Below, one piece after another: positions 2,518 through 15,110 of a stretch of DNA of 23,506 bases. Where the stretch lies: positions 1 to 23,506 of the IMG/VR virus record IMGVR_UViG_3300030329_001213; one strand, written 5' to 3'. This stretch comes from a virus. Position 1 is the first letter of the stretch, and every line of letters starts with the position of its first letter. A program made the position numbers and the translations under genes. The notes below the pieces were generated by a model that worked only from the letters and a program-made list of their open reading frames with translations, did not search any database and had not been told where the DNA came from.

Positions 2518-2553
2518 ATAAAAAAGGGGATGTTATAATTTTATAACACCCCC
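2518..2553 (-). terminator. Intrinsic terminator after SSB
   Basis: The minus-strand RNA forms a stem with TGTTATAA paired to TTATAACA (2531-2538 with 2541-2548) and a GGGG/CCCC base, followed by a run of U encoded by 2518-2525. It lies between the SSB stop and the nuclease ATG at 2517, so it limits expression of the downstream genes relative to SSB. Confidence 0.8.
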
Positions 2554-2571
2554 TATCCTTTCACACATTTA

Positions 2572-7042: not shown

Positions 7043-8697
7043 TAATTATCTCCTTCAAAAGGATTATTAACTTCACTCATTCTACCACTATCTTTATCAT
7101 AGTTCAAGTAGCAAGCAACACCTGTATCACCTGTATATCTATTCTTGAGAATACGTATTGTTGTTGTATTAGCTTCCATAGGATCATCAGCTTGTTGATT
7201 ACGTTCCAAGGCTATGACTGCATCAGATAGATGTGCAATAGAAGCAGAGCCACGTAGATGTGAAAGAGATACTTCACGTCCATCTTCATGACCACGATCA
7301 CCACTTGGCCTACGTAGGTGGCTTACAAGCAACAGAGAGATACCTGTTTCTTCTACAAGAGAACGTAACTTGGTCATAAGAATATCAATAGACTTACGTT
7401 CATCACCATTATCTTCTTGCCCTGATACTAAAATAGAAAGATGGTCTAGGATAATCCATTTACATCCAAGCCCTCGTGCCATGTATCGAACACGAGATAG
7501 TATTTCATCATTGGATATAGAACCAAAGTGATCAAAGGCAAAGAACCTTTTAGTTCCTATGGTTTTATCTTGCCACTCACGTAACTGTTCAGGTGTAAAC
7601 TGATCACGTACTTCTCTAATATACAATCGAGCATTGGCTTCAACACTCATAATATTAAATGCAGTATTGCGTACACTTTCTTCCATTGCTAAGACACCAA
7701 TGTTATCTGATGTTTCACTCATGAGATGGTGCATTAGTTCACGCATGATACTTGATTTACCCATACCAGCACCACTTGTAAATGTTATTAGCTCACCAGT
7801 ACGCATACCATAAGTCTTTTCATTAAGACCTTGCCAAGGATATAAACAAGTCTCACAATAGTTTTCATCATAAAGTTTATCGCCAAGGTCATGTAGATTA
7901 ATTATACCAGCAGGTGTAAATGGTTTAGCAGCCCACCATGCTTTCATAAAATCTTCTGCTTTATTAGCCATAAGATATTCATTAGCATCTTTAAGATCCA
8001 TAGACATAATCTTACATTTATTTGGTTCAAAAACTTGTACAAGATCTTGAGCAGCTTGCTTACCTGCTTTATCATTATCAAAACAGATTACTATATTATC
8101 AAATTGATCAAGATACTCAAACGATTGTTTGCAATTAGCAACAGCAGATGCAGCCCCATTCTTCAGGGATACACAAGGCCACTTCGATCCCATCATTTGA
8201 TATGCACTCATGGCATCTACTTCGCCCTCGCATATTGTTATGTACTTACCCTTCTGAGTAAATACATTTTCTCCAAACAGCCCTGCTTTTGATAGCCCAC
8301 CTTCAGACCAAAACTTTTTCTCTTTAACACCACGAATTTTATTACCTATGTGTTCACCATTTCTATCATAATATTTATAACAATGATGTGTAACTTCCCC
8401 TAAGTTTTTCTTAATCATGGTGCCATATAATTTAGCAGTAGCTACATTAATCTTTCTATTATCTATTTCACTATACTCACATTGCTTACTGGAATCGCTT
8501 GCTTTTCCTCCTACTTCAGAGGATATATTAATAATTTTCTTATTGGTCATATTCATGGTAACATTTTCCTTTGGTGGTTTATAAGTTTTACAGCTAAAAC
8601 AATACGTATGTCCATCAGGATAAGTGTAGTTTGCATCTGAAGAATTACATTCAGAACATGGGCCGTGTTTTCCTGATCCCATTTCGTTTGGTCGCAT
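7042..8697 (-). CDS. DNA primase-helicase, T7 gp4-like
   Basis: A 551-residue bifunctional enzyme that primes and unwinds at the phage fork. Domains in order: an N-terminal zinc-binding module with Cys14, Cys17, Cys33 and Cys36; a TOPRIM primase domain with ICEGEVDA (155-162, Glu158) and CFDNDKAG (205-212, Asp207 and Asp209); and a DnaB-type RecA helicase domain with Walker A SGAGMGKSS (308-316), catalytic Glu340 in LAMEE, Walker B IILDH (415-419), LLVSH (456-460) and the C-terminal LRGSASIAHLSDAVIALERN. All key residues are present. The ATG at 8697 has AAGGAG upstream and lies within the end of the preceding small gene. Together with the family A polymerase and SSB it completes a T7-type replisome. 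Confidence 0.95.
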   Translation of the reverse strand: MRPNEMGSGKHGPCSECNSSDANYTYPDGHTYCFSCKTYKPPKENVTMNMTNKKIINISSEVGGKASDSSKQCEYSEIDNRKINVATAKLYGTMIKKNLGEVTHHCYKYYDRNGEHIGNKIRGVKEKKFWSEGGLSKAGLFGENVFTQKGKYITICEGEVDAMSAYQMMGSKWPCVSLKNGAASAVANCKQSFEYLDQFDNIVICFDNDKAGKQAAQDLVQVFEPNKCKIMSMDLKDANEYLMANKAEDFMKAWWAAKPFTPAGIINLHDLGDKLYDENYCETCLYPWQGLNEKTYGMRTGELITFTSGAGMGKSSIMRELMHHLMSETSDNIGVLAMEESVRNTAFNIMSVEANARLYIREVRDQFTPEQLREWQDKTIGTKRFFAFDHFGSISNDEILSRVRYMARGLGCKWIILDHLSILVSGQEDNGDERKSIDILMTKLRSLVEETGISLLLVSHLRRPSGDRGHEDGREVSLSHLRGSASIAHLSDAVIALERNQQADDPMEANTTTIRILKNRYTGDTGVACYLNYDKDSGRMSEVNNPFEGDN

Positions 8698-8842
8698 TTA
8701 GTTTCTCCTTTTTAATTGAATATAAGGACATGCTTGATCTTAACATGTAACATAAGTTATCTCTTTCTTCAAGAGATTCTTTTGCTTCATGCTTGGTTTT
8801 AAACTTACCAATTATTTGATCTTTATATGAGACTACCCACAT
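8651..8842 (-). CDS. Small protein, 63 aa, start at hairpin base
   Basis: An unrecognised protein whose first part (MWVVSYKDQIIGKFKTKHEA) has the strand-helix look of a small phage protein, followed by a basic tail. It overlaps the primase-helicase start by 47 nt. The ATG at 8842 has no Shine-Dalgarno site and touches the base of the hairpin at 8843-8896. It is either controlled by that structure or the true start is internal. The tail overlapping the primase gene lowers confidence. Confidence 0.45.
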   Translation of the reverse strand: MWVVSYKDQIIGKFKTKHEAKESLEERDNLCYMLRSSMSLYSIKKEKLNATKRNGIRKTRPMF

Positions 8843-8896
8843 GATGAGGATTAAATCTCCCGGATCACAAGGGATGAGGGAGATTTAATCTTCATC
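8843..8896 (-). other. Conserved-loop hairpin, copy 1
   Basis: A perfect 13-bp stem (8849-8861 with 8878-8890), extended by six more pairs including one G-U to 8843 and 8896, encloses a 16-nt loop. The loop (8862-8877, plus strand) contains ATCACAAGGGA. No U-tract follows on the minus strand, so it is not an ordinary terminator. The same loop layout recurs at 12,396-12,443. It separates the stop of one small gene from the start of the next. Confidence 0.75.
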
Positions 8897-9070
8897 AAAA
8901 GTCTCCTTCCACAGGTTGTTAACAAAGTCTTCTTTGTCTTTCATGATTTGATTAATTTCTATTTTGGCAAAGTGTTTTGCTTCTTTAATATTATATCCTT
9001 CTTCCTTGTATTCTTTAACAAGGTTCTTAAATAATAAAGCTCTATCTTTTTGCCAAAAGTTTTTAGTCAA
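8885..9070 (-). CDS. Small helical protein, 61 aa (TTG start)
   Basis: The best start is TTG at 9070, immediately after the previous stop (TAG at 9071), with GAAGGTAGAG upstream as a loose ribosome binding site. The protein is charged and helical, with KEYKEEGYNIKEAKHFAKIE and a C-terminal FVNNLWKETFDED. Similar short, lysine- and glutamate-rich proteins occur in many phage early regions with no known function. The stop lies within the right arm of hairpin copy 1. Confidence 0.6.
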   Translation of the reverse strand: MTKNFWQKDRALLFKNLVKEYKEEGYNIKEAKHFAKIEINQIMKDKEDFVNNLWKETFDED

Positions 9071-9259
9071 CTAAGTATCTCTACCTTCTTTAAGTTCAGC
9101 CCATAAATTATTTGGACTTACTTCTTTTTTTATTTCAGACAACTCTCTCTTTAATTGTTTAATTGTTTCTCCTTGACGTTTATTAAGTGTTCTCAATGTA
9201 TTTATATTTTTATTTAATTGATTAACAATAATATTGTATTCTTTAATGCAGTCTGTCAA
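9071..9259 (-). CDS. Small coiled-coil protein, 62 aa (TTG start)
   Basis: Starts with TTG at 9259, supported by AAGGAG 9 nt upstream; there is no in-frame ATG nearby. Residues about 8-48 form a likely coiled coil (NQLNKNINTLRTLNKRQGET and IKQLKRELSEIKKEV). It overlaps the upstream gene by 17 nt. No function can be given; a small oligomer is likely. Confidence 0.6.
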   Translation of the reverse strand: MTDCIKEYNIIVNQLNKNINTLRTLNKRQGETIKQLKRELSEIKKEVSPNNLWAELKEGRDT

Positions 9260-9446
9260 TTAGAATATCTCCTTCTTCTGAACCTTCAGGCATCTCCATA
9301 CCAAGATCTCCTAAAAATTTTACAGCTTCTCCTTTAGTATTAAATTTTATAGGAAATCCTTTAGCACTTGTTAGTATGTCGAACCTATCAAAAACTTCTA
9401 TATCTTCATGAGCTTCGTTCATAATGTTTTGTACTATAATAAACAT
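9243..9446 (-). CDS. Hypothetical protein, 67 aa
   Basis: The start is taken as ATG 9446, which overlaps the upstream stop as TGATG, a re-initiation arrangement. The N-terminus is hydrophobic (MFIIVQNIMNEAHED), followed by a KGEAVKFLGDLGMEMPEGSE segment and an acidic end. No family recognised. Confidence 0.6.
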   Translation of the reverse strand: MFIIVQNIMNEAHEDIEVFDRFDILTSAKGFPIKFNTKGEAVKFLGDLGMEMPEGSEEGDILIDRLH

Positions 9447-9697
9447 CAAACACTAACCAACCAATCATTTTTATCAGATTTTTCACGACATGATGGACAC
9501 CTCATTGATGCCCATGAGAAGTTGTGTACTAATTCTAGCTCACTACATACAGGACAGATAATAATTTTACCTTTCTTACCAGCCCTTGTATAACGATCAA
9601 CATTTTTAAATCCATCTTTATAAATGTTTAACTTTGACTTACCATTCACATTAATCTTTAGTGCATTAAATAACCATTCAAAAAAATCTTTTTTCAT
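9446..9697 (-). CDS. Small zinc-ribbon protein, 83 aa
   Basis: Contains two Cys pairs, CPVC (about 48-51) and CPSC (about 67-70), forming a probable zinc ribbon, preceded by a basic region (RAGKKGKIIICPV). Zinc ribbons of this kind in phages bind nucleic acid or protein; no specific family is recognised. The start ATG at 9697 overlaps the previous stop (9694) as ATGA. The downstream neighbour is coupled by TGATG. Confidence 0.68.
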   Translation of the reverse strand: MKKDFFEWLFNALKINVNGKSKLNIYKDGFKNVDRYTRAGKKGKIIICPVCSELELVHNFSWASMRCPSCREKSDKNDWLVSV

Positions 9698-9885
9698 TTT
9701 TTAAATCTCCTTCTACGAACAAACTTACCCATGTCTCTCTCAGTAAAACATATTTCTTTTTCAATAGCTGTTCTTATTGCAATTAAACATTTTATTTTTT
9801 CAGAAAAATCCATTGCATTAAATTCTTTTTTCATAATCAATACAGGAATTTCATTTTCTTTAGACACTTCCATGACAACAGACAT
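9694..9885 (-). CDS. Small basic protein, 63 aa
   Basis: ATG 9885 has AAGGAG 7 nt upstream and shares its A with the upstream stop (TAATG). A methionine-rich N-terminus is followed by an amphipathic helix (FSEKIKCLIAIRTAIEKEI) and a strongly basic C-terminus (GKFVRRRRFKK) that could bind nucleic acid. Not recognised. Confidence 0.62.
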   Translation of the reverse strand: MSVVMEVSKENEIPVLIMKKEFNAMDFSEKIKCLIAIRTAIEKEICFTERDMGKFVRRRRFKK

Positions 9886-10052
9886 TACTTATCTCCTTGT
9901 TCTTCAAGACCATTGAGAAAACTATTTATATCAGATAGTTTAATATCAGTCAATTGATTTACTTTGATACCTGAAAAAGTTACTACTGATACTACATAAT
10001 CTGCTAACATTTTAGGTATGTCTCCATAGGATTTAAAATTATAATGAGTCAT
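9885..10052 (-). CDS. Small protein, 55 aa
   Basis: An open frame from ATG 10052 (ATGA overlap with the upstream gene) to TAA at 9885 (TAATG overlap with the next). It begins MTHYNFKSYGDIPKMLADYV and ends with NSFLNGLEEQGDK. Overlaps on both sides make it convincing as a gene although no motif is recognised and the ribosome binding site is weak. Confidence 0.58.
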   Translation of the reverse strand: MTHYNFKSYGDIPKMLADYVVSVVTFSGIKVNQLTDIKLSDINSFLNGLEEQGDK

Positions 10053-10252
10053 AATAATTTCTCTTGCTTATCTTCAGCTACAGGTTCTTCATTAATCTTT
10101 AATATACATTTACCATCTTTGGCATATAAATATATTATATCATAATATTTACCATCTTGCAACTCAACATATAACATTTTATTTAGATCTGCAAGTCTAT
10201 CTTTATTATAAGATATTAAAGCACTTATTACATTAGAAGAAGTGATTGACAT
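10049..10252 (-). CDS. Small protein, 67 aa
   Basis: The frame stays open to 10,321, but that extension would run through the tRNA-like element. ATG 10252, with AAAGGA about 8 nt upstream, is the supported start. The protein has an N-terminal helix (NVISALISYNKDRLADLNKM) and strands with DGKYYDIIYLYAKDGK. Not recognised. Confidence 0.62.
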   Translation of the reverse strand: MSITSSNVISALISYNKDRLADLNKMLYVELQDGKYYDIIYLYAKDGKCILKINEEPVAEDKQEKLL

Positions 10253-10277
10253 ACTAATTTCCTTTCGATAAATAAGA

Positions 10278-10370
10278 TAGAAGGGAGGGGAATCGAACCC
10301 CTCATTACAGGCCATCACCACCTGCTATTCCTTAGTGATGCTTCCAGAATATAAACTCTCCAGACCTTCC
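10278..10370 (-). ncRNA. tRNA-like element (canonical T-arm and acceptor, non-canonical middle)
   Basis: The minus strand has a textbook T-arm, AGGGG-TTCGATT-CCCCT (10302-10286), followed by CCCTTCT and a discriminator A (10278). A matching 5' strand GGAAGGT lies at 10370-10364 and pairs at six of seven positions including one G-U. The 93-nt length fits a type II tRNA. However, I cannot place a normal D-arm or an anticodon loop with U33; instead the middle forms an 8-bp hairpin (CATCACTA with TGGTGATG, 10340-10313). CCA is not encoded. It fills a 126-nt gap in a region where genes otherwise overlap. It could be a degenerate tRNA, a tRNA mimic, or a tRNA-derived attachment-site remnant. Confidence 0.45.
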
Positions 10371-10378
10371 AGTATTCA

Positions 10379-11296
10379 TTAAGCTGCTTGTAACATTTTC
10401 CAATCGTCAGAGTCAAGCATTTTTCTTACAGCATCTTCACGATTAACTCTTTTGTTATGCTGTTTACTTTCTCTCTTGCCATCATCAACATGGGTTGACC
10501 ATGCAGTTGCTGCTTGATATGCAGTCCACAAAGAACCTTTCATTTGTGTACCATACTTTTCGTATAGTCCTCGACCATGTACATGTTGATTTTCTTTATC
10601 AAAGATCTTCATAAGATTAGATAATACAATTTTATTACCTACATTCTTACGTTTAACATTATCCAATCGTTTGGCTAATGTATTGGTAAATAAAGATATA
10701 GCTTTATCTCTACTAAGCTCAGTATTATACCATCGTTTCATTTCACTTAGACCATCACCTGCTATATATTCAGATGCTGCTTTTATCTTTGCACCAAAAG
10801 AAACAGGACTGAAGTTCTTGGTATGTCTACCATATACATAAGCTAACTTATTACCATTAACTAAAGTATTGAAACAAAAAGCTCTGAACAAACCCATCAT
10901 ACCATTGTTCGCCCATGTTCTGTTATGACTTGTACGAAAGACAAACTGTGGTATAACTAAACCTTTACCATCTATGTTCTGTGCATGTGCTGGAAACTTG
11001 GCAATTAATTCCATTTTATTTCCACGATCATATACATTGGTTTGAAATTCTGCATCAGTAAGATCCAGACCAGCTAGGTTTAAAGCTTCTTCAATCTGAT
11101 CTACAATCGTAAGATATTGTACAGGTTCATAGCTCTCGGTAACAACAGCCATTAATTCTTTTGTATCTTTACGTCGAAGACCCATACCAATATCAGGACT
11201 CATCTCTTCATTATAAAGTACATGTTCAGGAGTTTCATTTACAAACTCTAAAGGGAATTTCTCAACTTGAAAATTTAGTACATCACGATTAAACAT
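10379..11296 (-). CDS. DUF932 phage/plasmid-like protein
   Basis: A 305-residue member of DUF932 (TIGR03299, phage/plasmid-like protein), recognised from MGLRRKDTKELMAVVTESYEPVQ, FQTNVYDRGNKMELIAKFPA, and VFRTSHNRTWA followed by FRAFCFNTLV. The family is widespread on phages and plasmids, often near replication or recombination genes; no enzymatic activity is established. The start chosen is ATG 11296, with AAGGAG 7 nt upstream; the frame extends to an ATG at 11,347 inside the preceding gene. It overlaps that gene by 8 nt. The tRNA-like element follows its stop. Confidence 0.85.
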   Translation of the reverse strand: MFNRDVLNFQVEKFPLEFVNETPEHVLYNEEMSPDIGMGLRRKDTKELMAVVTESYEPVQYLTIVDQIEEALNLAGLDLTDAEFQTNVYDRGNKMELIAKFPAHAQNIDGKGLVIPQFVFRTSHNRTWANNGMMGLFRAFCFNTLVNGNKLAYVYGRHTKNFSPVSFGAKIKAASEYIAGDGLSEMKRWYNTELSRDKAISLFTNTLAKRLDNVKRKNVGNKIVLSNLMKIFDKENQHVHGRGLYEKYGTQMKGSLWTAYQAATAWSTHVDDGKRESKQHNKRVNREDAVRKMLDSDDWKMLQAA

Positions 11297-11483
11297 CTTC
11301 TTCTCCTTTTGGACATTCTTGGTTAATAATTCTAACAGGTCTTTCATTACTATAAAAACAAGTTAACTTCATTTCTTCTCCTTGGTCAGTTATAATTGAA
11401 ACATCTACCCAGTTACAGCCTTTCTCTGAGTACTGATCTTTTGTAAGAATAATATCTTTTACTTTGTGAAAGTTAAGATCCAT
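11289..11483 (-). CDS. Hypothetical protein, 64 aa
   Basis: A small strand-rich protein with VDVSIITDQGEEMKLTCFYS in the middle. ATG 11483 has AAGGA about 7 nt upstream. Its last codons overlap the ribosome binding site and start of the DUF932 gene, suggesting coupled expression. Not recognised. Confidence 0.6.
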   Translation of the reverse strand: MDLNFHKVKDIILTKDQYSEKGCNWVDVSIITDQGEEMKLTCFYSNERPVRIINQECPKGEEDV

Positions 11484-11507
11484 ATTAAATTCCTTATTTA
11501 GAGTTTA

Positions 11508-11705
11508 TCAAACTAATTGTACACTTATTGTATTAGAATAGTCAAGCTTTACCTCACTTTCATTTTCATATTGATATGTTGGTTCATAGTATTCAAGCTC
11601 ACCAGTGCCTTCACATTCACGACATTGATCTGGTATAGTTTTGTATCCGTAAAGTTTTCCAGCACCATTGCAATCCTCACATTCTTTTACAATAACCCAA
11701 GTCAT
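11508..11705 (-). CDS. Small DnaJ-type zinc-finger protein, 65 aa
   Basis: Two copies of the CxxCxGxG motif are present: CEDCNGAG (about 9-16) and CRECEGTG (about 28-35). This is half of the four-repeat zinc-finger domain of DnaJ (Hsp40), with no J domain. Stand-alone mini-fingers like this occur in phages and are thought to bind protein or nucleic acid; the client here is unknown. The C-terminal half is acidic and tyrosine-rich. ATG 11705 overlaps the upstream stop as ATGA. Confidence 0.72.
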   Translation of the reverse strand: MTWVIVKECEDCNGAGKLYGYKTIPDQCRECEGTGELEYYEPTYQYENESEVKLDYSNTISVQLV

Positions 11706-11887
11706 TTATATGTGTCCCTTGTTACTGTTATTTTCCATTTCCATTCGCCTTTAATGGGTTCATCAGATGTAACTATCTGACATTGATTAAATTCTTTTAC
11801 TCCTTTCAATCTTTTTAATATTATTTCACCAATAGTTAGTTGATCATCACGATCAAAGCCATCACTAAGTGTGATTTGTTTTACCAT
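11702..11887 (-). CDS. Small protein, 61 aa, paralogue A
   Basis: The start is ATG 11887, just past the upstream stop; the longer frame to 11,947 would run back through the upstream gene. The core DDQLTIGEIILKRLKGVKEF and the C-terminal WKWKITVTRDT are closely shared with the gene at 12079-12234, so the two arose by duplication. No domain is recognised. The core looks like one helix flanked by strands. Confidence 0.62.
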   Translation of the reverse strand: MVKQITLSDGFDRDDQLTIGEIILKRLKGVKEFNQCQIVTSDEPIKGEWKWKITVTRDTYK

Positions 11888-11888
11888 A

Positions 11889-12077
11889 TTAATGCTCAAC
11901 TTCTTTTCCTTTACATGTTTTAATAACCCACAATCCTTTGATATCATTAAGAAAACTCATGTCTTGATTGTTGTCAACCATACATTGTAGTGCTTCTTGT
12001 AATGTCATATCCCATCGGTCACTTATTAACCATTCGAGTTGATCCCAACCTTTAATTACTACAGTTCTATTACTCAT
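11889..12077 (-). CDS. Hypothetical protein, 62 aa
   Basis: ATG 12077 has GGAG 6 nt upstream. The protein contains WDQLEWLISDRWDMTLQEAL with several tryptophans and a helical centre; no family recognised. It lies between the two duplicated genes, separated by 1 nt on each side, and may have been part of the same gene set that expanded. Confidence 0.62.
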   Translation of the reverse strand: MSNRTVVIKGWDQLEWLISDRWDMTLQEALQCMVDNNQDMSFLNDIKGLWVIKTCKGKEVEH

Positions 12078-12078
12078 A

Positions 12079-12234
12079 TTAATCTCCCTTTGTTACTATT
12101 ATTTTCCACGACAATTGAAATTTATCATGATTAAAATCTTCTATACCTTCTAATCTTTTTAATATTATTTCACCTATAGTTAATTGTTCATCATCGTTAA
12201 AACATTCTTGGATTAAATCTAGTCTTTCTAACAT
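12079..12234 (-). CDS. Small protein, 51 aa, paralogue B
   Basis: An open frame from ATG 12234 (GGGAG upstream) to TAA at 12079. Its DDEQLTIGEIILKRLEGIEDF and WKIIVTKGD match paralogue A at 11702-11887 almost residue for residue. The N-terminus differs (MLERLDLIQECFN). Similarity to the neighbour supports both as real genes. Confidence 0.65.
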   Translation of the reverse strand: MLERLDLIQECFNDDEQLTIGEIILKRLEGIEDFNHDKFQLSWKIIVTKGD

Positions 12235-12235
12235 A

Positions 12236-12379
12236 TTAATCTCCCTCTTCATACCTAGCTAATGCCATATCAGTTGCTGCATGTTCAGCTTCACCTTTGC
12301 TCATACCATTTCCTATTAATTCTTCATAAGCTTCCTCCCAAAAACGCATTAATCTTTCTTCATTCCACATACAAGACAT
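12236..12379 (-). CDS. Small protein, 47 aa
   Basis: ATG 12379 has AAGGA 7 nt upstream; a second ATG at 12384 is out of frame and gives only 11 codons. The peptide is helical and acidic (MRFWEEAYEELIGNGMSKGE, then AEHAATDMALARYEEGD). It follows hairpin copy 2 by 16 nt. Not recognised; length and ribosome binding site are the evidence. Confidence 0.55.
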   Translation of the reverse strand: MSCMWNEERLMRFWEEAYEELIGNGMSKGEAEHAATDMALARYEEGD

Positions 12380-12395
12380 ATCATTTCCTTTCAAG

Positions 12396-12443
12396 ATCTA
12401 TATAATCCCCCATATCACAAGGGAGGTGGGGGATTATATAGAT
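12396..12443 (-). other. Conserved-loop hairpin, copy 2
   Basis: A perfect 16-bp stem (12396-12411 with 12428-12443) closes a 16-nt loop, 12412-12427, that contains ATCACAAGGGA at the same loop position as copy 1 (8843-8896). Stem sequences differ between the copies while pairing is kept. No U-tract follows on the minus strand. The ribosome binding site of the next gene starts a few bases downstream. Confidence 0.78.
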
Positions 12444-12456
12444 TGTTATTATTATA

Positions 12457-12678
12457 TTAATTTCTTCTCCATTTTACATCACTCATACCAAGTGTCAACC
12501 TTGATGGTTCTTCTTCATTAAAAGATGAACCTATTATAGTACATAGTGATTTACTATATACTATTTCATAAGGTTCACCATAATCATCAAAGTATGATTC
12601 TAATATTACATCATTGAGTGCTTTCTGTTTAGCTGCCCAATTATATGTTAAGATCCAACTACCTTTATCTGTTAACAT
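12457..12678 (-). CDS. Hypothetical protein, 73 aa
   Basis: A protein with SWILTYNWAAKQKALNDVIL, an acidic YFDDYGEPYEIVYS stretch and a basic end (DVKWRRN). ATG 12678 overlaps the upstream gene by 14 nt; the ribosome binding site is weak, so coupling is likely. Not recognised. Confidence 0.62.
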   Translation of the reverse strand: MLTDKGSWILTYNWAAKQKALNDVILESYFDDYGEPYEIVYSKSLCTIIGSSFNEEEPSRLTLGMSDVKWRRN

Positions 12679-12847
12679 ATTTAGAACTTTCTTTTACTAC
12701 ATAACAAAATTGTTTTTGACAACTTTGATTAGCCCATTGACGCATTACTTCCTGATACTTTGTAGAATTATCAAAGTCAGATAACATAAAGTCTTTAAAC
12801 TCTTTATCATTAGCAGGAATATCTTTGGTCATATTAATTATTTTCAT
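12665..12847 (-). CDS. Hypothetical protein, 60 aa
   Basis: The start is ATG 12847 with GGAG 7 nt upstream. The frame is open to 12,895, but that extension reads through the terminator hairpin and is not used. The peptide begins MKIINMTKDIPANDKEF and contains WANQSCQKQFCYVVKES. Not recognised. It is the first gene after a strong terminator, so it depends on readthrough or a promoter I cannot identify. Confidence 0.62.
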   Translation of the reverse strand: MKIINMTKDIPANDKEFKDFMLSDFDNSTKYQEVMRQWANQSCQKQFCYVVKESSKYVNR

Positions 12848-12862
12848 AGGTAACTCCGTAAT

Positions 12863-12898
12863 AAAAAAAGAGAGTAAGTACCCGAAGGTACTCACTCT
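12863..12898 (-). terminator. Intrinsic terminator with UUCG tetraloop
   Basis: On the minus strand AGAGTGAGTACC, the loop TTCG, and GGTACTTACTCT form a 12-bp stem with one G-U pair, capped by the extra-stable C(UUCG)G tetraloop. A run of seven U encoded at 12863-12869 follows. It ends the transcript of the gene at 12926-13276. Confidence 0.88.
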
Positions 12899-12925
12899 AG
12901 GTTGATCTAAGTATCGGGAGATTAC

Positions 12926-13276
12926 TTAGATAATTTCATATGGAATATCACTTCCTGTATCCCCAATAGTATTGTTACGAGATGGAACATTACTATGTAC
13001 ATTCACAAGCTTATCCATATCTCTTACTGGAAAGTCACTAGGTAAGTTTCTAATACCATCAGTCACTATTGCTTCATGACCTACTATAATATCAGTACCT
13101 TTCACAGTATAAAACTTTACAATACCAAAGCCAGCTTCTTTTACTTTAGCGAAGTTAGCTTTCATAGCATTACGATCACCCGTATTAGGCATTTCTTTCC
13201 ATTCAGGTTTCTTTGCCTTATGATCATAATATTTCCACACTTGACTACTCATAATATTTGTATACGAAAAAGACAT
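12926..13276 (-). CDS. Hypothetical protein, 116 aa, with structured leader
   Basis: A protein with an N-terminal YYDHKAKKPEWKEMPNTGDR, a basic helix (MKANFAKVKEAGFGIVKFYT) and a strand segment TDIIVGHEAIVTDGIRNLPS. I recognise no family. GGAG lies 8 nt before ATG 13276. It is insulated: a structured leader sits upstream (13298-13377), a hairpin with a U-run precedes that, and a UUCG terminator follows the gene. That arrangement suggests individually regulated expression (inference). Confidence 0.7.
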   Translation of the reverse strand: MSFSYTNIMSSQVWKYYDHKAKKPEWKEMPNTGDRNAMKANFAKVKEAGFGIVKFYTVKGTDIIVGHEAIVTDGIRNLPSDFPVRDMDKLVNVHSNVPSRNNTIGDTGSDIPYEII

Positions 13277-13297
13277 AATATGTCTCCTATAATTGTA

Positions 13298-13377
13298 CTG
13301 CTATCATCCCCTAGCAGCATGGGGGTGTGTGTGCCGAGCATCGCCCGACTCATTGGAGAAGGGGCGATGTAAGGCAC
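13298..13377 (-). promoter_or_regulatory. Structured leader RNA, riboswitch-like candidate
   Basis: Two hairpins lie in the leader of the gene at 12926-13276. The larger pairs GTGCC with GGCAC (13331-13335, 13373-13377) and CATCGCCC with GGGCGATG (13339-13346, 13362-13369) across a symmetric 3x3 internal loop. The smaller pairs CTGCTA with TAGCAG (13298-13303, 13312-13317). Its minus-strand loop GGGGATGA can pair with the upstream CCCCC (13321-13325), giving an H-type pseudoknot. It does not match any riboswitch consensus I know. The RBS is about 10 nt downstream. Confidence 0.55.
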
Positions 13378-13393
13378 AGGAAAGGGAAGCTCC

Positions 13394-13414
13394 AAAAACT
13401 CATCAGTAATGAGT
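13394..13414 (-). terminator. Weak intrinsic terminator
   Basis: ACTCAT and ATGAGT (13398-13403, 13409-13414) form a 6-bp stem with a 5-nt loop, followed on the minus strand by a short U-run. It overlaps the stop codon of the small membrane protein gene. The stem is short, so termination would be partial. Confidence 0.4.
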
Positions 13415-13615
13415 GTGGTGTCTACTCCTCCATAGGTGGTGTAGTATTACAACAGATAATGCTATTAATATTAACCCAATTGTTAATTGTAACAGTCCAA
13501 ATATATCATAGTATACTGTACCAATTGATGAGAATACTCCTGCTGTTGATAACAGGAATAATGTACCCATTATAAATGCTATTAAAGCTATTACAATTAA
13601 TTCTAATTTCGTCAT
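13403..13615 (-). CDS. Small membrane protein, two spans
   Basis: A 70-residue protein with two hydrophobic segments, about 4-26 (LELIVIALIAFIMGTLFLLS) and about 38-62 (FGLLQLTIGLILIALSVVIL), and a short basic, histidine-rich C-terminus. Phage holins have this size and layout, but it lies in the early arm and no endolysin is near, so that assignment is not supported. The ATG at 13615 shares a base with the upstream stop (TAATG), with AAGGG upstream. Confidence 0.65.
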   Translation of the reverse strand: MTKLELIVIALIAFIMGTLFLLSTAGVFSSIGTVYYDIFGLLQLTIGLILIALSVVILHHLWRSRHHTHY

Positions 13616-14073
13616 TATTCTACCCTTTCTTTAGCTGTTCCTAACATTTCATTAGCTAATTCCAATGCTCTATTCGGTGTGTAACAGTATTGATAAGCAT
13701 CTTTCTGTTTAACATAATTCTTATACTCTACCACTCTCACTGGTATTTTAAACTCTTTGGCTATATTAATCATATGTTTACTACCTTTTGATATACCATC
13801 CCAGAATACTACACAACCATCAGCTTGTGCTGCCATAACAGTGTTACGTTTATACCCTGCTGATTTACCATACCTATCCCAATCAGCTTCTATTATCACT
13901 ATGTCTAAAGATTTTCGTTTAGCATACTCTCTACCAAGAGTATCAGCACCTCTTGCACCACCAGATATAATACATACATCTGATTTATTAATTAAAAGCT
14001 TATCTAATTTATACTCTAACAGATTATAATCTACAAACTCACGACTACCAGCTACAATTACTTTGAATGACAT
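13615..14073 (-). CDS. DUF2493 / SLOG-fold nucleotide-binding protein
   Basis: A 152-residue Rossmann-like protein of the DUF2493 group in the SLOG superfamily, related to DprA and YspA-type proteins. Signatures are KVIVAGSREFVDY (4-16), IISGGARGADTLGREYA (35-51), a conserved WDRYGKSAGYKRNTVMA (65-81) and the hydrophobic strand CVVFWDG. SLOG domains bind nucleotides or nucleotide-derived ligands; phage members have no settled function and may bind signalling nucleotides. AAGGATGGAGCC precedes ATG 14073. A long hairpin lies just upstream of this site. Confidence 0.85.
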   Translation of the reverse strand: MSFKVIVAGSREFVDYNLLEYKLDKLLINKSDVCIISGGARGADTLGREYAKRKSLDIVIIEADWDRYGKSAGYKRNTVMAAQADGCVVFWDGISKGSKHMINIAKEFKIPVRVVEYKNYVKQKDAYQYCYTPNRALELANEMLGTAKERVE

Positions 14074-14086
14074 GGCTCCATCCTTT

Positions 14087-14129
14087 CTTAAAAAATGCCA
14101 AGTTCACTTGTCTGAAGGCATTTTTTAAG
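14087..14129 (-). terminator. Long hairpin with U-rich arm
   Basis: CTTAAAAAATGCC (14087-14099) and GGCATTTTTTAAG (14117-14129) form a perfect 13-bp stem with a 17-nt loop. On the minus strand the descending arm contains six U. It could act as a second terminator after the 14216-14241 one or as a leader hairpin of the DUF2493 gene, whose ribosome binding site follows directly. Confidence 0.5.
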
Positions 14130-14200
14130 GAAGAAAAAGAAAGAAAAGAAAGAAGAAGACAGGCTAGGTCGTATTAATTGTATAGTGGATAAAAGCGTCG

Positions 14201-14247
14201 AAAAAAAAAAGCAAGGGGGACGATGCAAGAACACCGTCCCCTGTTGC
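14201..14247 (-). terminator. Strong intrinsic terminator
   Basis: GGGGACG and CGTCCCC (14216-14222, 14235-14241), extended by GCAA with TTGC at the base, are followed on the minus strand by a run of ten U (14201-14210). The gene at 14249-14608 ends directly before it, so it caps the first leftward transcript. Confidence 0.88.
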
Positions 14248-14248
14248 A

Positions 14249-14608
14249 CTACCGTTGTATGGCAAATACCCTGCCAGAAGTATCAAACTCATGAGCCTTA
14301 CCATGGAATGAAATACCACTCATGTTAGACGCTTTTAACTCAGTGAACCATCCAAGCATAGTGCCATTGGCCATGACGTGTTGCTCTTGAACACATAGGC
14401 CATACTGTCTACACAGCGTCCAACGGGCTGCTGCAATGCTCTTCTTTTCAACATTGTCGGTAATTTTATCTAAGCCAGCGTATAGCTCATACATTACCAA
14501 GGGCTTAACCTTGGCAGGTAAACCGAGTACTGACCTTGCAGCCTTAGCCTCTGCACTACGACCGTTGAAGAAGGGTACAATATGAGATGGAATAATAAAG
14601 ATTCGCAT
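14249..14608 (-). CDS. Hypothetical protein, 119 aa (first leftward gene)
   Basis: Start chosen at ATG 14608, with GGAG 7 nt upstream; an open extension to 14,698 crosses a perfect inverted repeat and is unlikely to be coding. The protein contains an N-terminal strand (MRIFIIPSHIVPFF), a helix (SAEAKAARSVLGLPAKVKPL), AAARWTLCRQYGLCVQEQH and TELKASNMSGISFHGKAHEF. I recognise no family. Base composition is less AT-rich than its neighbours. As the first gene of the leftward arm, with its own terminator, it is a candidate host-takeover or regulatory gene (inference from position). Confidence 0.72.
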   Translation of the reverse strand: MRIFIIPSHIVPFFNGRSAEAKAARSVLGLPAKVKPLVMYELYAGLDKITDNVEKKSIAAARWTLCRQYGLCVQEQHVMANGTMLGWFTELKASNMSGISFHGKAHEFDTSGRVFAIQR

Positions 14609-14647
14609 AACAAACTCCAAGTTGGTTAAAGGAAGGAACCTCACTAA

Positions 14648-14690
14648 GAAGAAATGTGGCGAGGTCACGAGCCAACTGACACATTTCTTC
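14648..14690. repeat. 11-bp perfect inverted repeat in leader
   Basis: GAAGAAATGTG (14648-14658) and CACATTTCTTC (14680-14690) are exact reverse complements with 21 nt between. The repeat lies in the presumed leader of the first leftward gene and could form a leader hairpin or an operator. Confidence 0.6.
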
Positions 14691-14814
14691 GGAATCATCT
14701 TGTCTCATTACTTGACTCGTCACCAGATACGGTATATCATCATGTAGTGTAGGTTACAAGTATGGTCTAATAATGTTCAATTACTCAGTACTTTCAATAG
14801 CTTAGATAAAATGT

Positions 14815-14884
14815 GTATATACTAGAACAACTCTTTCCTCCACCTTATAAAGAATAAGCTGGATGAAAATGTTCTAGTATATAC
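14815..14884. repeat. 15-bp inverted repeat (possible cruciform)
   Basis: GTATATACTAGAACA (14815-14829) and TGTTCTAGTATATAC (14870-14884) are perfect reverse complements 40 bp apart. The spacer itself contains TCCA-C-CTTAT paired with ATAAG-C-TGGA, so the whole block could extrude as a nested cruciform. The arm contains the TATATACTAGA box that recurs at 14982. Confidence 0.75.
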
Positions 14885-14898
14885 TCGTTACTTGCTAA

Positions 14899-14972
14899 TT
14901 TTTTCCGTAGGGAACCCATCGGGAGGACTTCGAAGGAACTGAGAAGGTCCGATGGGTACCCGGAGGAAAAAA
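14899..14972. repeat. Long interrupted hairpin in control region
   Basis: TTTTTTCC (14899-14906), GGG (14910-14912) and CCCATCGG (14915-14922) pair with CCGATGGG (14949-14956), CCC (14959-14961) and GGAAAAAA (14965-14972), giving 19 pairs around two symmetric internal loops. There is no U-tract on either strand, so it is not a standard terminator. Confidence 0.72.
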
Positions 14973-14983
14973 TACGCTTCTCT

Positions 14984-15010
14984 AGTATATATATAAACCA
15001 CCACTGTCAA
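14984..15010 (-). promoter_or_regulatory. Leftward early promoter candidate
   Basis: On the minus strand TTGACA (15010-15005) and TATACT (14989-14984) have the same boxes as the SSB promoter. The spacer is only 15 bp, so strength is uncertain. The -10 box lies within a TATATACTAGA copy, so a regulator binding that box would block it. Confidence 0.45.
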
Positions 15011-15061
15011 ATATTCTCAAAAAATCAAGGGTTTATCCTCAAAAAAACCAATCGGCTATCA

Positions 15062-15087
15062 TTAAAGTTACTTTAAAGTTACTTTAA
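15062..15087. promoter_or_regulatory. Tandem palindromic operator candidate
   Basis: The 15-bp palindrome TTAAAGTTACTTTAA occurs at 15062-15076 and 15073-15087, overlapping by 4 bp, with centres 11 bp apart, about one DNA turn. It lies 24 bp upstream of the -35 box of the TerL promoter, a suitable place for a regulator binding one face of the helix. Confidence 0.6.
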
Positions 15088-15110
15088 TTATATTTATTTT
15101 ATTTTTTTAT

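What the first reader, a model, noticed from the sequence alone, without database searches (positions are those of the whole stretch)
8843..12443. Two hairpins with different stems but the same loop
Hairpins at 8843-8896 and 12396-12443 each have a long perfect stem and a 16-nt loop, and both loops carry ATCACAAGGGA at the same position. The stems differ in sequence (…AATCTCCC against …AATCCCCC with different lower parts) but pairing is preserved in both, which is covariation between two copies in one genome. Neither is followed by a U-tract. Each sits directly before a small gene. This looks like an undescribed structured RNA or a binding site recognised through its loop.
Basis: seen in the sequence. 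Interest (0 to 1): 0.78.

Follow-up and report, generated by a model that had tools for sequence, protein, structure and literature searches.

The report
Loop-conserved RNA hairpins between phage genes
In a group of uncultured marine viruses of bacteria, the short gaps between small genes carry long RNA hairpins whose stems change freely but always keep pairing while the loop stays recognisable, so they look like an undescribed signal that the virus's messenger RNA uses at gene boundaries.

Summary
Two more hairpins (13330-13378, 14081-14135) sit at gene boundaries of the same operon; one shares the loop pattern, the other belongs by position. At all four boundaries, related IMG/VR phages (downstream proteins 41-87% identical) have a hairpin. 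At the third, the stem sequence is entirely different and only the loop pattern NCYYYNNYGA remains.

Searching outward gave two linked classes. Class A (17 copies) has covariation score 0.396 against 0.120 shuffled. Class B (38 copies) has 0.540 against 0.152, and a further scan found 71 distinct class B hairpins. In class B a tandem-GA core (GA-GUAUCUUAC-GA) caps a variable, paired stem. They act on the gene strand: 11 G-U against 1 A-C pair, and SD plus start codon downstream in 44/64 copies against 1/64 on the other strand. No U-tracts, no Rfam match, absent from the cultured pelagiphages searched.

Best reading: an RNA signal at gene boundaries, recognised partly through its loop, serving mRNA processing, stability or translation start. 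The mechanism is inferred. Closest known by position: mycobacteriophage ESAS repeats.

The parts
8842..8897 (-). Hairpin 1 (class A): 20-position stem, 16-nt loop; stop codon of the upstream gene lies in the 5' arm, ATG of the downstream gene overlaps the last base; GGGAG (possible SD) is in the 3' arm
8865..8874 (-). Loop core of hairpin 1, UCCCUUGUGA (pattern NCYYYNNYGA)
12396..12443 (-). Hairpin 2 (class A): 17 perfect pairs; 13 nt after the upstream stop codon, 16 nt before the next ATG
12415..12424 (-). Loop core of hairpin 2, UCCCUUGUGA
13330..13378 (-). Hairpin 3: same loop pattern (TCTCCAATGA at 13350-13359) on a wholly different stem; placed in the family by loop and orthologous position (L019, L111, L228, L037); model R2 does not score it
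14081..14135 (-). Hairpin 4 (probable member): 19-position stem directly before the SLOG-family gene; its loop deviates, but the orthologous site in L228 holds a standard class A hairpin
8651..8842 (-). Small gene (63 aa) after hairpin 1; homologues 65-77% identical in L092, L093, L094 also follow a hairpin
12236..12379 (-). Small gene (47 aa) after hairpin 2; homologues in L094, L019 and L037 (64-87% identical) also follow a hairpin
12926..13276 (-). Gene (116 aa) after hairpin 3; homologues 41-71% identical in L019, L111, L228, L037 also follow a hairpin
13615..14073 (-). YspA/cpYpsA-related SLOG-family gene (152 aa) after hairpin 4

Best explanation
The two hairpins belong to a multi-copy family of cis-acting RNA elements at gene boundaries in the early (replication) operon of a clade of uncultured marine tailed phages. 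Shown by sequence: each is a long helix on the mRNA strand with a conserved loop, either NCYYYNNYGA or a tandem-GA-capped loop; in class B it usually starts at or near the stop codon of one gene and ends shortly before the ribosome-binding site of the next; natural selection keeps the pairing and the loop, not the stem sequence. Inferred: the helix, marked by its loop, is bound by a trans-acting RNA-binding protein or nuclease (phage or host) and works as an intercistronic processing, stability and start signal, so that each small gene of the polycistronic message gets its own protected, separately regulated 5' end. It is not a transcription terminator and not a DNA element.
For: Compensatory pairing: class B 92.2% of cells paired, 166 double-change cells against 46 shuffled; class A 93.8%, 70 against 24. 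Models find many copies in relatives; R1 finds none in 594 kb of other phage DNA; the tandem-GA scan gives 168 hits (71 distinct) in relatives, 0 in controls, 0 in shuffled sequence. RNA of the gene strand: G-U 11 to A-C 1 in unfiltered outer-stem positions, SD plus start within 45 nt in 44/64 on the same strand, 1/64 on the other, 155/1280 at random. Boundary placement: loop inside an ORF of at least 60 aa in 3/64 against 719/1280 random; stop codons cluster at the base of the 5' arm. Orthologous boundaries keep a hairpin while the stem is replaced. A U-tract follows 0 of 71 class B copies.
Against: No binding partner or nuclease was identified; a gene-content comparison gave only families that look like neighbours or structural genes. 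Several near relatives by terminase and the cultured phages HTVC023P, HTVC027P, HTVC103P and HTVC115P show few or no such hairpins, so the element is not essential across the wider group. Loops vary between genomes and sometimes within one genome, which weakens the idea of one strict recogniser. In hairpin 1, but not elsewhere, the SD lies in the stem, so the effect on translation may differ by site. About a third of class B copies had no SD plus start detected within 45 nt downstream.
Confidence: 0.5

Rival explanations
1. Plain mRNA processing and stability helices: the stems are RNase III substrates or exonuclease barriers between cistrons, as in T7 early RNA; the loop is conserved only because it caps the helix well (tandem G-A pairs, tight turn).
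For: Stems of about 15-25 pairs at cistron boundaries; class B helix with a mismatch (often A-G) at one stem position; no U-tract.
Against: A generic RNase III site needs no conserved loop, yet the loop is the best conserved part in class A. The class B core is partly fixed by the search pattern, so only its recurrence in the unfiltered scans counts.
Confidence: 0.27
2. Translational coupling device: the hairpin blocks or spaces ribosome loading until the ribosome finishing the upstream gene opens the lower stem.
For: Stop codons at or inside the 5' arm and start codons shortly after the 3' arm; in hairpin 1 the only SD-like sequence is in the 3' arm.
Against: In most copies the SD is outside the helix and free; loop conservation is not explained.
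Confidence: 0.12
3. DNA-level element (protein-bound inverted repeat, cruciform, replication or recombination site, or small mobile palindrome).
For: Multi-copy inverted repeats; one boundary holds the hairpin in L092 and a different structured stretch in the window although the flanking proteins are 99-100% identical.
Against: Strong strand bias of G-U over A-C pairs and fixed orientation to the downstream start; stem sequences differ, which speaks against recent mobility of one sequence and against homologous recombination through the stem.
Confidence: 0.06
4. Intrinsic transcription terminators or attenuators.
For: Stable helices with GC-rich tops between genes.
Against: 0/71 class B copies have at least 5 T in the 8 nt after the stem; neither window hairpin is followed by a U-tract; the terminator scan flags three other sites in this region, not these hairpins.
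Confidence: 0.04

Closest known systems
Extended start-associated sequences (ESAS) of cluster K mycobacteriophages (PMC3203893) and Microbacterium cluster EF phages (PMC7302621)
   Same: Imperfect inverted repeats in the short gaps just upstream of the ribosome-binding sites of small non-structural genes, many copies per genome, function unknown; several of those checked in TM4 fold as hairpins. The AnnaSerena ESAS is described as centred on GTAGAG, which also occurs in the class B core (AGTAGAGTAT); possibly coincidence.
   Different: ESAS repeats have a consensus stem sequence and a variable spacer and are tied to a 13-bp SAS; here the stem is variable and the loop is conserved, and no SAS-like sequence was seen. 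Model R1 finds nothing in the TM4 stretch searched.
RNase III processing sites between T7 early genes (own knowledge)
   Same: Long hairpins between early genes of one polycistronic message, not terminators.
   Different: No family-wide conserved loop is known there; cleavage here is untested.
18-bp inverted repeats of Microbacterium cluster EG phages and 17-bp repeats of cluster O mycobacteriophages (PMC7302621, PMC4351075)
   Same: Multi-copy inverted repeats; those of EG lie in short intergenic regions 14-22 bp upstream of start codons.
   Different: One fixed palindromic sequence with a 2-3 nt spacer and no covariation reported; cluster O repeats are not start-associated and often lie inside genes.

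Membership tests
Rfam families (release 15) | Match at or near the gathering score | tested here: not met
   Window and four class A/B loci searched at relaxed E-value; only chance hits to miRNA and snoRNA models, none on the two window hairpins
ESAS/SAS of cluster K mycobacteriophages | Inverted repeat directly upstream of the ribosome-binding site of small genes | tested here: met
ESAS/SAS of cluster K mycobacteriophages | Conserved 17-bp repeat sequence with variable spacer | tested here: not met
   Stem variable, loop conserved
ESAS/SAS of cluster K mycobacteriophages | Adjacent 13-bp SAS (GGGATAGGAGCCC) | not tested
   No such motif was noticed in the downstream sequences printed, but no search for it was run
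Intrinsic terminator | U-tract after the stem | tested here: not met
   0/71 class B copies; none after the window hairpins
RNase III processing site | Cleavage by RNase III within the helix | not testable with these tools
   Needs biochemistry or end mapping
CsrA/RsmE site | ANGGA in the loop of the transcribed strand | tested here: not met
   AGGGA is on the non-gene strand; the gene-strand loops are pyrimidine-rich, and relatives' loops lack it
Mobile palindrome (REP/MITE-like) | Near-identical copies at non-orthologous places | tested here: not met
   Copies differ in stem, and class A copies stay at orthologous gene boundaries

The most novel reading that the evidence does not exclude
A phage RNA regulon: one trans-acting RNA-binding protein or phage-modified nuclease reads a common loop on otherwise freely diverging hairpins at many cistron boundaries, and so sets processing and translation of early genes one by one.
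Probability: 0.35. Interest if true: 0.75.

Novelty: new variant of a known kind. Interest (0 to 1): 0.6.

Why it matters
Start-associated inverted repeats in phage genomes were described in 2011 and their function is still unknown (PMC3203893). This family is a cleaner case: stems diverge so far that selection on pairing and on the loop can be seen separately, which argues for action as RNA and for recognition of the loop. It turns 'repeats upstream of starts' into a testable RNA hypothesis, and it shows that uncultured marine phages hold strongly covarying RNA families that Rfam does not cover.

Tried and rejected
The exact loop pattern in IMG/VR gave 9 hits, none a matching hairpin, so the exact 11-mer is not the family signature. 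Megablast of the window and distant blastn of the hairpin 2 region found no annotated phage, and blastn of a class B hairpin gave only chance matches. R2 also hits loci that had been fetched with the same stem pattern; those are by construction and are not used as evidence or as a control. Cultured pelagiphages HTVC023P, 027P, 103P and 115P lack the family. Gene-content comparison for a trans-acting factor gave no convincing candidate. No match to the class B core pattern in 84,980 prokaryote genomes, so the host was not identified this way. A first count of coding strand around class B copies (the 31/71) used only long ORFs and is misleading in this region of small genes; it was replaced by the test.

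Full report
Observation. The window is a 23.5-kb virus record with DNA polymerase, primase-helicase, terminase and portal genes. The region 8,000-14,700 is a run of small genes on the minus strand. The two hairpins are real and far more stable than shuffled sequence. Because the genes lie on the minus strand, the transcribed loop is UCCCUUGUGAU.

More in the same window. A loop-pattern comparison shows a third hairpin (13330-13378; loop TCTCCAATGA) and, by position, a probable fourth (14081-14135). Each of the four lies between two genes.

Relatives. Terminase and primase searches fetched many related IMG/VR contigs. At the four boundaries the downstream proteins of the window are 41-87% identical to proteins that also follow a hairpin in L092, L093, L094, L019, L111, L228 or L037. 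At the third boundary the stems are TGTGCCTTACATCGCCC (window), GTGTCTCAGAAGCCCC (L019) and AGCAATCCCTCACT (L111): no common sequence, yet all pair, and the loops TCTCCAATGA, TCCTCGGTGA and ACTTCTACGA fit one pattern. At the fourth, L228 has a standard class A hairpin where the window has one with a deviating loop.

Class A statistics. Seventeen copies aligned give 93.8% paired cells, 17 of 24 pairs with double changes and a covariation score of 0.396 against 0.120 for shuffles (0/500) and at most 0.086 for slid partners. A regular-expression test for the loop pattern with a stem found 14 distinct hairpins in 2.26 Mb of relatives, 0 in 653 kb of other phage DNA, 0 in shuffled sequence and 1 with the loop read backwards. 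The pattern was derived from some of the same copies, so the comparison is descriptive.

Class B. Relatives more distant in this region carry a second form: distal CTAATTAA/TTAATTAG-like stem, a stem position often holding an A-G mismatch, a variable helix, AGTA/TACT, tandem GA, and GUA-UCU-UAC. The pattern search found it in 60 stretches. Positions 16-20 from the outer end are paired in all or all but one of 52 copies with three to four pair types at most of them. The 38-copy alignment gives a score of 0.540 against 0.152. The innermost part was fixed by the search pattern and must not be counted; unfiltered scans still recover the same cap and variants such as GAACTATAGTGA, where the inner pairs change together. 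Some class B loops (GA-ACTCTTACGA) also fit the class A pattern, which links the classes. Model R1 finds many copies in relatives and none in 594 kb of unrelated phage contigs. Hairpin-bearing genomes of 47-60 kb have up to about ten hits, one site sometimes being hit on both strands.

Strand and position. In outer-stem positions that were not used for detection there are 11 G-U and 1 A-C pairs. SD plus start lies within 45 nt downstream in 44/64 copies on the same strand, 1/64 on the other, 12% at random places; loops lie inside ORFs in 3/64 against 56% at random. Stop codons of the upstream gene cluster at the base of the 5' arm. This indicates RNA acting at cistron boundaries.

What it is not. 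No U-tract; terminator-like sites in this region lie elsewhere. No Rfam match. No match to the class B core pattern in 84,980 prokaryote species genomes. Not found in the cultured pelagiphages searched. A candidate trans-acting gene did not emerge.

Mechanism. Conserved loop on a freely changing helix, repeated at gene boundaries, is the pattern expected of a recognised RNA signal. I judge intercistronic processing or stability combined with control of the next start most likely (about 0.5), plain RNase III-type helices next (0.27), translational coupling 0.12. None of these steps has been shown.

Known relatives. The closest described elements are the ESAS repeats of cluster K mycobacteriophages and of Microbacterium EF phages, of unknown function; several TM4 examples fold as hairpins just upstream of the SAS. 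They share place, not build: there the stem is conserved and the spacer varies. A search of the literature library for pelagiphage together with hairpin or repeat terms found no description of this element.

Limits. The host is unknown: terminase is 40-42% identical to HTVC023P-type pelagiphages and primase 48% to HTVC115P, which suggests but does not show a SAR11-like host. Several close relatives by terminase show few or no hairpins, so presence is patchy.

Noticed in passing
window 10280-10375 (-): A tRNA-like stretch (T-arm-like GAGGGGUUCGAUUCCCCUC and a possible 7-bp acceptor) that ARAGORN does not call; the same boundary in L092, between proteins 99-100% identical, holds a class A hairpin instead.
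   Followed up: partly
window 2525-2554: Hairpin AGGGGGTGTTA/TAACATCCCCT followed by a T-run directly before an ATGAAACAAATTGAAAC start; similar hairpins precede the corresponding start in many relatives (L094, L111, L113, G001, G002, G009), with or without a T-run.
   Followed up: no
window 14810-15108: Non-coding stretch between the two divergent gene blocks with several strong inverted repeats (14810-14889, 14898-14973, 15041-15108); candidate promoter or replication region.
   Followed up: no
window 13300-13325 (-): A second small hairpin (CCCCCATGCTGCTAGGGG) follows hairpin 3 and has a counterpart at the orthologous site in L019 and L111.
   Followed up: no
L316, L330, L351 and others: A family of about 65-96 aa proteins (..GxPIRVxHPxGxFKVIRNADxLPE) present in 9 of 11 hairpin-bearing and 0 of 5 other genomes compared, but absent from the window; probably part of the same early module.
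   Followed up: partly
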